This document shows positions 38,906-42,781 of a stretch of 42,781 nucleotides of DNA, piece by piece. Within the stretch, counting starts at the first letter, position 1. Each line of letters starts with the position of its first letter. Source of the stretch: Bacteroidia bacterium (GTDB lineage: Bacteria; Bacteroidota; Bacteroidia; SpSt-205); contig JANWXY010000077.1 in the NCBI GenBank assembly GCA_025057135.1, positions 1 through 42,781 of the forward strand, given 5' to 3'. The notes below the pieces were generated by a model. The model saw only the letters and a list, made by a program, of their open reading frames with translations, did not search any database and was not told the DNA's origin. The translations under genes were made by a program, and so were the position numbers.

Positions 38906-41900
38906 TTATACGGCCTTGGCTAAGGCGGGTTTGGTTTCCATATCTACTGCTAGCACTGTACTGACCCCAGGCTCAGGCATCGTCACCCCATATAGTCGTT
39001 CACAGTAAGACATCGTGATTTTATTGTGGGTGATTACTAATACGGGCGTAGTTTCAGATACTCGGCGCAGGAGCTGACCAAACTTATGCGTATTTACATC
39101 ATCCAGGGCTGCGTCAGCTTCATCTAATATGCAGAGTGCTGAGGCATGCACTGCGAACGTCGCAAAAAGTAAGGAAAGGGCCGTTAGTGCCTTTTCTCCT
39201 CCCGATAGCTGCTGGAGCGAGATAGGTCGTTTGCCTTTTGGGCGCGCTATGATCTCTATTTCACTGGTGAGGGGCGATTGAGGATGTAGAAGAACCATAT
39301 CGCAGGTATCCCCCTCCGCAAATAGCCCCTGGAAAAGCTGGATAAATCGCTGCCGTACGGCTTCAAATGTGGAGAGAAACTTTTCCTGAGCCTCCTTATC
39401 TAAGGAGCCGAGCAGCTGTTTGAGATTGGAGAAGGTGTGTTCAATGTCTGTTTTTTCCCGGACAATCTCTGTTTCACGCTGGATGAGGCTTTCCAAGGTC
39501 GCAGCGGCTTCAAAGTTGAGCTCGCCCAAGTGGGCGATTTGCTCTTTGATGCGCTGAAGCTGGCGTTCCACTTCCTCGGATTTGAGGCGTTGGGAGGGGG
39601 GGGCTGGTAAAGATTCGGGGGTGAGCTCCAGTTCTACTGATAGTCTTTGCAGTAAAAGTGCCTTACGCTGACTCAGTTCTGCTTGGCGAGCTTCGTAGCG
39701 GGCAATAGCAGATTGAAGGCTGTCCTTCTTGTGCTGCTTTTCACTGAGGTCTTTCCGAAGGGTGCTAAGTTGGGCTTCTATCTCCTTTTTCTGCTGGCGA
39801 AAGGAAGAGAGGCGTTCAGATAAGTTCTGAATCTGAGGCTCTAAAGTGAGTTTGCGCTCGGCGAGAATCTGAAGCTCCCTTTGCGTGCGAAGCAGCTCCT
39901 CCTTGAGGGAGGCCTCTTTCTCCGCCAGAGTACGCAGCCGTTTCTGAACTTCGTTCAACTGCTGGAGTGTGAGCTTTTGGGCATTTTCCGTGGATTTCAG
40001 TTCATTCTCTATTTGCACTATGGCAAACCGCAATTCTTGATGCGTTTTTTGGAGCTGGCCATACTGCTGGTGTAGGGCAGAGGTCTGCTGGTGGAGCGTA
40101 TCGTTTTCAGCGGTGAGGGCGACGAGCTGCTGTTGGATATTCTCTATGGCAGGTTTTAGCGCATTTAGTTCGGCGGTAATTTGTGCTTGTTTTTGTGTAA
40201 GCTGATGGGCATCTTGAAGGAGGGCTTGCTGGCGCTTTTGTGTCTCCTCTAAACGAATCTGAACGGCAGAAAGGTCTTTTTCTGCCTGAGCGGTTGCTTT
40301 GCGGGTAGTCTCTAACTTTTGGCGGTAAGCTTGTAGCGGGAGCCGAGCAAGAACCTGTTCTATCGTGCCAATCTCCTGACGTAAGATGGCGACATGCTGA
40401 GATAATCGCTTTTCTTCTACTTGCAGCTTGCGAATGCGGTGAGGCAAACCGATGTGTTGGGTCGGAGTCTCTGAGAGGAAATACAGCCGTCCATCTGGAA
40501 GGCGCATTTCTCGCCTATTGGCTGAGAGTTGGCGAGGTTTAGCTTCGCCTTCCCATCCCACATCCCCCCAGAGATATTCTGCGAGCCCTTCAAATCCCTC
40601 TAAGGTCTGAAACTTACTGAGCCAAGCTGGACCAGCCTGAGTTTTTGAGGGTTGGTAGAGCCGCACAGCGAAAATGCCTTCCTTTTTATCTTGTAGAAAC
40701 TGATGGATAACTTCTGCATCGGAGGGGTTGGTCACCCACAGTGTAGGTAGCTCTATACGCAGGAGCAGACTGAGGTAAGGGAGCTCTTCTTCTTCGGCGA
40801 AAAAGATATCCTCTGTACGCCAAAACTGAATACCGAGCTCTCGTAGCTTTATCAGATAGGTTGGCCATCCGTCATTCCGTGCCAGCAGAGCTTCTAAGCC
40901 TTCTCGCTGAGATTTCAATCCCTGCAAGCGGGCTTGGAGCTGATGGAGACGCTGGCGCAGATTATCCTTCTCTCTCACGAGTACGGAATGGTAAGCTGTG
41001 AGGGCTTGAAGATGCTGTTGTAAGGTCTGGAACTCTTGCTGTAAAGCCTTGAGCTTCTCTGTGTTTGTTTCCCTCTCTTGGGTGAGGGTGTGAAGCGCAT
41101 TTTGAAGAGAATCTTGTTCTCTTTCTACCTGTTGGAGCCGCTCCACGAGCGGACGCATCGTAGCCTCCAAGGTCTGACGACTATTTAGTAGCCGACGCTG
41201 CTCTGTCTCCAACTGCCGCTGCTGCTCCGCTCGTTCGCGTGCCTGAGATTCTAACTTGCGGAGATCGGCTTGGATGGTCTGGAGCTGTGAGCTTATCGTG
41301 GTAAGTAGAGCCTGCTTTTCGTTGTAAGAAGTAGAGAGGGCTTCTTGTTTTTGGCGAAAGGTCTGCTCTTCTGTATGGAGCTCTTCCCTTTGGCGATGAC
41401 GGAGGGCTTTTTCCTCACTTATCTCTCGCTCTTGCCGTTCTAAATGCTTGAGTCTTTCAGAGAAGCGGCTTTCTTCCCGTAGGATAGTTTGATATTCTGT
41501 CCTAAGGGTCTCATAAGCAGCTTCTACAGAGGTATCTTCCAGCGAGGCATACCGCTCTTCCAAAGCTTGTATCCTAAGCTCTAACTGCTCTATTTCCAAC
41601 CTGAGTACCTTGAAGGTTTCCTCTTGGGTGTGATTCTGCTCGGAGTGTTGAGCTTCGGCTTTGGCGATAGCTGCTAATTCCTGGCTAATCCATGCAGAAA
41701 GAAGCTCCCGATATGCCTGCTTGAGTTTCTGATAGGTGGCGACCTTTTCGGCTTGAGAGGTGAGGGTTTTTATCTGCTGGCGGAGTTCTGTTAGGAGATT
41801 TTCTATTTGAGAGAGGGCACTTTGAGTTTTTTCCAGCTCTGCGAGGAGCTCTTTTTTATGGTGATGATAGCGTTCTATTCCGGCGAGAGATTCTATGAGG

Positions 41901-42358
41901 GCGCGACGCGCTCCTCCTCTATCCTGGATGAGCGCTTCCACCTGTCCTCCATCCAAAATGCTCTGAGGGGAAAGCCCCACTTGCCAGAAGTAATTGAGAA
42001 AATCTTTTAGCCTTGCGGGTGTATTATTGAGAAAATACTCGCTTTCACCAGTTCTATACACACGCCTTGTAAAAGTCAAACGAGGCAGTTCGGGCGAGAA
42101 ATCTTCTACTTCCAGGGTAACTTCCGCAAAGGGGAGGGGCTTTCGCCGTTGGGAGCCGTTGAAGATGAGATTGTCTGCTTTCTCTATGCGCAGTAGCCGA
42201 TTTTTCTGTTCGCCCATGATCCAGCGCAGAGCATCGGCGATGTTAGATTTGCCGCAGCCATTCGGCCCTACGATTCCTATCAAGCGAGCATCTAAGGGCA
42301 ACTTGACCGCCTCCGCAAAGCTCTTGAACCCACGCAGTTCTAACGCCCGGAGTCGCAT
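38906..42358 (-). CDS. smc: Chromosome segregation ATPase SMC
   Basis: SMC dimers condense and organise the chromosome with ScpA and ScpB. The 1150-residue protein has Walker A GPNGCGKSN (31-39), two long coiled-coil arms, a central hinge region (about 493-643), the ABC signature LSGGEKALTALSLLF (about 1047) and Walker B LCILDEADAALDD. The hinge is divergent and I cannot see its usual glycine motifs. An open frame to 42406 adds 16 residues, but TACCTTTG lies 5 nt before the ATG at 42358 and family N-termini start there. It is probably transcribed alone. Confidence 0.95.
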   Translation of the reverse strand: MRLRALELRGFKSFAEAVKLPLDARLIGIVGPNGCGKSNIADALRWIMGEQKNRLLRIEKADNLIFNGSQRRKPLPFAEVTLEVEDFSPELPRLTFTRRVYRTGESEYFLNNTPARLKDFLNYFWQVGLSPQSILDGGQVEALIQDRGGARRALIESLAGIERYHHHKKELLAELEKTQSALSQIENLLTELRQQIKTLTSQAEKVATYQKLKQAYRELLSAWISQELAAIAKAEAQHSEQNHTQEETFKVLRLEIEQLELRIQALEERYASLEDTSVEAAYETLRTEYQTILREESRFSERLKHLERQEREISEEKALRHRQREELHTEEQTFRQKQEALSTSYNEKQALLTTISSQLQTIQADLRKLESQARERAEQQRQLETEQRRLLNSRQTLEATMRPLVERLQQVEREQDSLQNALHTLTQERETNTEKLKALQQEFQTLQQHLQALTAYHSVLVREKDNLRQRLHQLQARLQGLKSQREGLEALLARNDGWPTYLIKLRELGIQFWRTEDIFFAEEEELPYLSLLLRIELPTLWVTNPSDAEVIHQFLQDKKEGIFAVRLYQPSKTQAGPAWLSKFQTLEGFEGLAEYLWGDVGWEGEAKPRQLSANRREMRLPDGRLYFLSETPTQHIGLPHRIRKLQVEEKRLSQHVAILRQEIGTIEQVLARLPLQAYRQKLETTRKATAQAEKDLSAVQIRLEETQKRQQALLQDAHQLTQKQAQITAELNALKPAIENIQQQLVALTAENDTLHQQTSALHQQYGQLQKTHQELRFAIVQIENELKSTENAQKLTLQQLNEVQKRLRTLAEKEASLKEELLRTQRELQILAERKLTLEPQIQNLSERLSSFRQQKKEIEAQLSTLRKDLSEKQHKKDSLQSAIARYEARQAELSQRKALLLQRLSVELELTPESLPAPPSQRLKSEEVERQLQRIKEQIAHLGELNFEAAATLESLIQRETEIVREKTDIEHTFSNLKQLLGSLDKEAQEKFLSTFEAVRQRFIQLFQGLFAEGDTCDMVLLHPQSPLTSEIEIIARPKGKRPISLQQLSGGEKALTALSLLFATFAVHASALCILDEADAALDDVNTHKFGQLLRRVSETTPVLVITHNKITMSYCERLYGVTMPEPGVSTVLAVDMETKPALAKAV

Positions 42359-42363
42359 CCCCC

Positions 42364-42371
42364 CAAAGGTA
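42364..42371 (-). promoter_or_regulatory. TAnnTTTG -7 promoter box of smc
   Basis: Minus-strand TACCTTTG is followed by GGGGG and the ATG at 42358 (5 nt). The G run between box and start could look like a Shine-Dalgarno, but it touches the start codon, so it cannot act as one. Confidence 0.7.
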
Positions 42372-42499
42372 GAAGGGCATTCTGGGGAAAGCTGTGGAAA
42401 AGTCAATCCACCCCTCGCAGTAAAGCACCTTTATCATCGGCGTATTCACTTTGGGCTGTAAATAGGATGCGAAAAAGAGCTACAATACTTCCTTAGTCC

Positions 42500-42507
42500 T
42501 ATCTTTG
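42500..42507 (+). promoter_or_regulatory. TAnnTTTG -7 promoter box of the right-edge unit
   Basis: TATCTTTG is followed by CTAAA and the ATG at 42513 (5 nt). It is divergent from smc and marks a new transcription unit that carries the methyltransferase fragment. Confidence 0.62.
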
Positions 42508-42512
42508 CTAAA

Positions 42513-42677
42513 ATGTCTTTGGAAGAAGCTCTCCGTATCATGGGAAAGCTTCTGCGGGAGCATAGAGGTGAAGAGCTTGTCAAAAAAGTTCGTTACAGGT
42601 CGTCCTTTTTGATGAGGGAGATAGTCGGAAAAGCTATGGGAATTAGCCATGCCCTCTCTCTTGCGCTCTTTCTCTGA
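42513..42677 (+). CDS. Small 54-residue ORF upstream of the methyltransferase
   Basis: The ATG lies 5 nt after a promoter box, which supports expression. The product is basic and helical (MSLEEALRIMGKLLREHRGE at the start) and ends in a hydrophobic ALSLALFL. Its last 29 bp overlap the methyltransferase frame. It may be a separate small protein, or the true N-terminus of the methyltransferase broken by a frameshift or sequencing error. No family is recognised. Confidence 0.45.
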   Translation: MSLEEALRIMGKLLREHRGEELVKKVRYRSSFLMREIVGKAMGISHALSLALFL

Positions 42678-42781
42678 GGAGAAGTTAGCGGGCAAGTTCT
42701 ATACGCCTGAACCCCTCGTTGAGGAAGTCTTAGAGGTCGCAGGGTATGTACCAAAGCCTAAAATGCGCGTATTAGACCCAG
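42649..42781 (+). CDS. N-terminus of an N6-adenine DNA methyltransferase, cut by the window end
   Basis: The 44 visible residues include LAGKFYTPEPLVEEVLEV and end MRVLDP. The KFYTPEPLVE pattern followed by VLDP is the opening of the class I SAM fold in type I HsdM, Eco57I-like and type IIG methyltransferases, where VLDP leads into the SAM-binding loop. These enzymes methylate adenine in DNA, usually as part of restriction-modification or phage defence. The catalytic NPPY and target-recognition parts lie beyond the window. The frame is open back to 42625 with no better start than the ATG at 42649. Confidence 0.75.
   Translation, partial: MPSLLRSFSEEKLAGKFYTPEPLVEEVLEVAGYVPKPKMRVLDP

What the first reader, a model, noticed from the sequence alone, without database searches (positions are those of the whole stretch)
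42500..42781. Right-edge unit: small ORF overlapping a DNA methyltransferase
A leaderless-type promoter starts a 54-codon ORF whose end overlaps, in another frame, the beginning of an adenine methyltransferase with KFYTPEPLVE and VLDP. The layout could be a small regulator coupled to a restriction-modification or other phage-defence gene. It could also be one gene with a +1 frameshift, programmed or from sequencing error, between about 42625 and 42677. The rest of the system lies outside the window and is the likeliest place here for something undescribed.
Basis: partly seen in the sequence, partly recalled or inferred. Interest (0 to 1): 0.55.

Follow-up and report, generated by a model that had tools for sequence, protein, structure and literature searches.

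The report
Ordinary DNA methyltransferase behind a mini-gene
At the cut edge of this bacterial DNA piece sits the start of a common type of DNA-marking enzyme, read from the same message as a tiny reading frame with no known relatives; it looks like a leftover of a restriction-modification system rather than a new defence system.

Summary
The layout is real. A Bacteroidota-type promoter (42500-42507) lies 13 nt before ATG 42513, the spacing of neighbouring leaderless genes. It opens a 54-codon ORF (42513-42677) whose last 29 nt overlap, one frame on, an adenine methyltransferase starting at ATG 42649. The contig ends at 42781, inside that gene. A same-genus genome holds the full gene: 485 aa, Eco57I type, 57% identical over the stretch seen. 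Its last 54 codons open contig C27 of the window's genome, so one gene is probably split by an assembly gap of about 390 codons. Six relatives start at the same M-x-S position without such an ORF, so a frameshift fusion is unlikely. The next gene on C27 points the other way, and no defence partner was found in the proteins tested. Relatives often carry an unnamed endonuclease of about 230 aa beside the enzyme, interrupted in 6 of 9 copies. Best reading: a restriction-modification-derived methyltransferase, now apparently alone, on a leaderless mRNA whose first ORF is an orphan leader or relic. No homologue of that ORF was established; resemblances to NadB and the endonuclease did not hold up under controls. 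Ordinary, low interest.

The parts
42500..42507 (+). TATCTTTG, Bacteroidota -7 box (TANNTTTG), 13 nt before ATG 42513
   Evidence: same offset (12 or 13) before 8 large ORFs among the 9 other such sites in window plus C27
42513..42677 (+). 54-codon ORF, first ORF of a predicted leaderless mRNA; no established homologue
42649..42781 (+). 5' end of an Eco57I-type DNA adenine methyltransferase gene, cut by the contig end; the last codons are probably C27:2-166
42649..42677 (+). 29-nt overlap of the 54-codon ORF with the methyltransferase (frame +1)
38906..42358 (-). divergent neighbour: chromosome segregation protein SMC, own leaderless-type promoter at 42371 (-)
   Evidence: NCBIfam SMC_prok_B 690.9 bits against cut-off 567.35; promoter

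Best explanation
An Eco57I-type N6-adenine DNA methyltransferase of about 490 aa, of restriction-modification descent and now apparently without its endonuclease, is read from a promoter at 42500. The mRNA starts at or one base before the AUG of a 54-codon ORF. Ribosomes load on that terminal AUG and translate the short ORF; the methyltransferase is started inside its 3' end (AUG 42649, 26 nt before the stop codon), by coupling or by independent initiation. The short ORF is an orphan leader or decayed remnant, not a conserved partner. Shown: the frames, the promoter position, the start codon by homology, the enzyme class from its relative. Inferred: transcription start, coupling, joining of contigs C59 and C27, loss of the endonuclease, solitary function.
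For: Promoter offset signature. Full-length relative in G005: Eco57I 99.6 bits against cut-off 25.3. Own-genome search gives one N-terminal piece (C59) and one C-terminal piece (C27:2-148, 78% identity to residues 436-484), the other 2 of 4 matches being weak pieces on C77. Six relatives share the start. Endonuclease beside the methyltransferase in 7 of 395 phylum genomes, all 7 among the 23 with the methyltransferase, and in G005; interrupted in 6 of 9 copies. No endonuclease relative in G000. The gene after the methyltransferase end on C27 is on the other strand.
Against: About 390 codons are missing, so the gene's integrity and the C59-C27 join are not proven. The codon score of the first 45 codons of the short ORF is ambiguous (49 of 660 true gene segments score as low, 86 of 502 false ones as high), so a real small protein is not excluded. 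A nuclease in the gap or elsewhere, too divergent to be found, is not excluded. [quoted passage not shown]
Confidence: 0.66

Rival explanations
1. The 54-codon ORF is what an in-frame internal deletion left of the endonuclease gene that stands in front of the methyltransferase in G005.
For: Same position, directly before the methyltransferase; by eye the ORF's start resembles the start of the G005 endonuclease frame.
Against: Local alignment score 30 against G005; 163 of 1000 shuffles do as well. Against the five other copies tested 45 to 970 of 1000 (6 of 9 copies tested).
Confidence: 0.1
2. The ORF encodes a small regulator of the methyltransferase, like the leaderless controller (C) genes that overlap the endonuclease gene in C-controlled systems.
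For: Leaderless start and overlap resemble pvuIIC-pvuIIR (abstract and passages of PMC2997769).
Against: No helix-turn-helix or other family match; single helix predicted, from one sequence; not conserved in front of relatives; the downstream gene is M, not R. In PvuII direct tests failed to detect a role of the overlap in translation.
Confidence: 0.1
3. Promoter and ATG serve only to make a 5' leader; the 54-codon frame is open by chance and not meaningfully translated.
For: ORF length within chance (129 of 2000 shuffles), weak codon score, no homologue.
Against: The ATG sits at the leaderless offset used by real genes here.
Confidence: 0.09
4. One gene broken by a +1 frameshift, programmed or a sequencing error.
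For: The two frames overlap, so a shift inside the overlap would give one open frame.
Against: Six relatives start at the homologous codon with M-x-S and align through the overlap; no such ORF in front of them.
Confidence: 0.02
5. The ORF is a piece of a nadB (L-aspartate oxidase) gene.
For: Residues 3-42 align without gaps at about 37% identity to ORFs of NadB length in many phylum genomes; best E 0.00147 (for one genome) among 395 genomes; NCBIfam E 0.1; a profile built from eight of these hits gives 20 bits (selected sequences, so biased). DNA score of 42360-42648 against the host's nadB 29, above all 50 shuffles (maximum 28), marginal.
Against: The host's own intact NadB and those of the ten other genus genomes score only 33-43, and 1 to 56 of 300 shuffles reach this; a relic of the host's gene should match it best. 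About 0.6 hits as good as the best are expected over 395 genomes.
Confidence: 0.03

Closest known systems
Eco57I / N6_Mtase type II adenine methyltransferases (solved relative by sequence: BseCI, 7qw5)
   Same: The G005 relative matches Eco57I and N6_Mtase above cut-off and BseCI at E 1e-25; the window fragment aligns from its first residue
   Different: Only 44 N-terminal and, probably, 54 C-terminal residues are seen in this genome
Solitary (orphan) methyltransferases
   Same: No endonuclease found beside it or elsewhere in this genome
   Different: Gap of about 390 codons unread; activity unknown
C-controlled restriction-modification systems such as PvuII (abstract and passages of PMC2997769)
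   Same: Short first ORF, leaderless, overlapping the next gene by tens of nt
   Different: Next gene is the methyltransferase, the ORF has no helix-turn-helix match, no endonuclease found

Membership tests
Eco57I / N6_Mtase adenine methyltransferase | Profile match above Pfam cut-off | tested here: inconclusive
   Window fragment N6_Mtase 17.7 bits, cut-off 20.4; full relative in G005 Eco57I 99.6 against 25.3
Eco57I / N6_Mtase adenine methyltransferase | Catalytic NPPY motif | not testable with these tools
   Lies in the unassembled part; present in relative L083 (GNPPYVRI); that it is the catalytic motif is recalled
Solitary methyltransferase | No cognate endonuclease in the genome | tested here: inconclusive
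   No relative of the G169 or G005 endonuclease in G000; draft genome, gap unread
C-controlled restriction-modification | Controller protein with helix-turn-helix | tested here: not met
   No Pfam, NCBIfam, PADLOC or PHROGs match of that kind; single helix predicted
BREX (PglX) | PglX profile above cut-off and partner genes | tested here: not met
   G005 relative 57.2 bits against 500; no BREX partner among seven C27 and three window proteins
MADS (MAD2) | MAD2 profile above cut-off | tested here: not met
   24.6 bits against 720 for the G005 relative
DISARM | Helicase and other partner genes beside the methyltransferase | tested here: inconclusive
   None among the ten proteins given to PADLOC; gap unread; the defining partners are recalled

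The most novel reading that the evidence does not exclude
The 54-codon leaderless ORF is a lineage-specific leader gene that sets the level of a solitary methyltransferase: ribosomes loaded on the 5'-terminal AUG are the main way to reach the internal start at 42649, so methylation follows leaderless initiation capacity.
Probability: 0.1. Interest if true: 0.35.

Novelty: new member of a known kind. Interest (0 to 1): 0.15.

Why it matters
It settles a candidate as ordinary: no sign of a new defence system at the edge. If the leader ORF controls the enzyme, it would be a simple test case for leaderless initiation and coupling in Bacteroidota, which lack Shine-Dalgarno signals. The unnamed endonuclease family beside the relatives, often interrupted while the methyltransferase frame stays open, may interest restriction-modification specialists.

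Tried and rejected
Endonuclease-remnant idea: tested by shuffling, not significant. NadB resemblance: looked striking with hits picked from 395 genomes, failed with the genus's own NadB. Frameshift fusion: rejected by the common start of relatives. RNA structure of 42513-42700: z -0.94, 36 of 200 shuffles fold as well. Rfam: 0 matches at E up to 1. Repeats: one imperfect inverted pair, 42524-42553, inside the ORF. Small ORF in phages, plasmids, viral contigs and solved structures: nothing usable. Synteny of SMC in the genus to prove the C59-C27 join: no C27 gene that would link the two was found beside SMC in the loci compared. The first codon model included a mis-framed SMC stretch; only the corrected run is used for coding scores. 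The first script stopped at a missing file after printing the frames.

Full report
What is there. The window is contig C59 of an unnamed draft genome (94 contigs, 2.08 Mb) and ends at 42781. The one named relative found with the SMC protein is a MAG titled Bacteroidia bacterium isolate SKYB95 (59% identity). From left to right: SMC on the minus strand, starting at 42358; a divergent promoter; a 54-codon ORF 42513-42677; and, overlapping its last 29 nt in the next frame, the start of a methyltransferase at 42649.

Promoter. TATCTTTG at 42500 fits the Bacteroidota -7 box. In the window plus contig C27 there are 53 TANNTTTG sites; ATG stands 12 nt after the first base in 6 and 13 nt after it in 4; the other offsets from 8 to 30 hold 0 to 3, except offset 20 with 6. 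Besides the site in question, 8 of the 9 others at offset 12 or 13 open ORFs of 184 to 1150 aa, among them SMC; one opens 14 codons. In eight stretches of related genomes 15 of 78 sites have these two offsets, 12 of them offset 12. Published mapping in Flavobacterium psychrophilum puts the box at -12 to -5 (passages read), so these ATGs lie at +1 or +2. The ATG at 42513 is therefore very likely the 5' end of an mRNA. ORF length itself is not evidence (129 of 2000 shuffles), and the codon score is ambiguous.

The methyltransferase. Of 100 genomes searched, two have the 44-aa N-terminus: this one and G005, a single-contig genome of the same genus, 57% identical. The G005 gene codes for 485 aa of Eco57I type, best solved match BseCI. 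Searching the window's genome with it gives 4 matches: the C59 end, C27:2-148 (78% identical to residues 436-484), and two weak pieces of a methylase-like ORF on C77. C59 and C27 thus most simply hold the two ends of one gene with about 390 codons missing; there is no direct proof of the join. Relatives G005, L083 (an IMG/VR contig, 64% identical to G005), G214, G169, G222 and G367 begin M-[PGA]-S at the same place as 42649. Among 12 related loci none has an other-frame ATG ORF over the methyltransferase start longer than 38 codons (for two of them, L063 and L065, the start used is not an ATG).

Context in relatives. In a sample of 395 phylum genomes 23 have the methyltransferase at E 1e-20 or better, this genome included, and 7 have an endonuclease-like protein related to the 229-aa one beside the G169 gene; all 7 are among the 23, and the protein lies close to the methyltransferase match. 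G005 has a distant member in front of its methyltransferase: alignment scores 61-67 against three copies, above all of 500 shuffles; against two others 10 and 301 of 500 shuffles do as well. A PADLOC REase_II profile matches it at E 6.2e-5; the G169 copy has no PADLOC match. Of 9 copies seen, 3 are open over the matched range (G169, G365, G128) and 6 are interrupted by an in-frame stop or a frameshift (G222, G257, G401, two in G357, G005); draft errors may explain some. The family has no Pfam or NCBIfam name. That it is a restriction endonuclease is inferred from place, that PADLOC match and its conserved pattern. In G005 the same cluster holds a second Eco57I-type and one N6_N4 methyltransferase. 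The window's genome has no relative of the endonuclease and only a weak partial match to the second methyltransferase. On C27 the gene after the methyltransferase end is on the opposite strand; Pfam names among the ten C27 proteins given include a VWA protein, a metallopeptidase, aconitase and GidB, and PADLOC finds nothing relevant in seven of them and three window proteins (the GidB protein matches MAD2 at 35 bits, as methyltransferases do).

The 54-codon ORF. No significant family, phage, plasmid, viral-contig or solved-structure match, and no relative in the 10 other genus genomes at E up to 10 (the only second match is a 30% piece in this genome, E 0.129). Two leads failed: the endonuclease start (163 of 1000 shuffles as good) and NadB (44 of 395 genomes with a match at E up to 0.1, this genome's own locus included, most of the others in ORFs of NadB length, best E 0.00147; but the genus's own NadB proteins are not closer). 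AlphaFold2 on the single sequence gives one helix, pLDDT 91, which says little.

How it most likely works. The mRNA begins at the AUG of the short ORF; the methyltransferase is started inside it. The layout recalls pvuIIC-pvuIIR, where the C transcript is leaderless and the C gene overlaps the R gene, and where direct tests found no role of the overlap in translation (abstract and passages of PMC2997769). Here the downstream gene is M and no regulator fold is seen, so it is not filed there. Solitary methyltransferases are common; whether they arise by decay of complete systems is disputed (PMC4176335, abstract and passages).

Verdict. Observation confirmed, interpretation partly supported, ordinary.

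Noticed in passing
window and L010 (contig C27): Leaderless-type starts look common in this genus: TANNTTTG 12-13 nt before ATG in 10 of 53 sites here and 15 of 78 in relatives, while published maps give 5.5% leaderless mRNAs in F. psychrophilum and about 3.7% of 5' UTRs under 10 nt in B. thetaiotaomicron (passages). The measures are not the same and were not compared genome-wide.
   Followed up: partly
L006:5185-9787 (G005) and loci L060, L061, L065, L067, L068, L084-L086: An unnamed endonuclease-like family of about 230 aa beside Eco57I-type methyltransferases, interrupted in 6 of 9 copies while most neighbouring methyltransferase frames stay open.
   Followed up: partly
L010:12486-16997 (-): A 1503-aa protein with nSTAND1, WD40 repeats and a LysM domain, about 12 kb from the methyltransferase end on C27.
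   Followed up: no
G000 contig C77:5988-6650: Another methylase-like ORF that also runs to a contig end.
   Followed up: no
L016 (G002) and L019 (G007): SMC matches with one in-frame TGA each in two related genomes, perhaps assembly errors.
   Followed up: no
L083:2491-5539: On an IMG/VR contig of 170 kb the closest relative outside the genus sits directly behind a second type II methyltransferase with no endonuclease between.
   Followed up: partly
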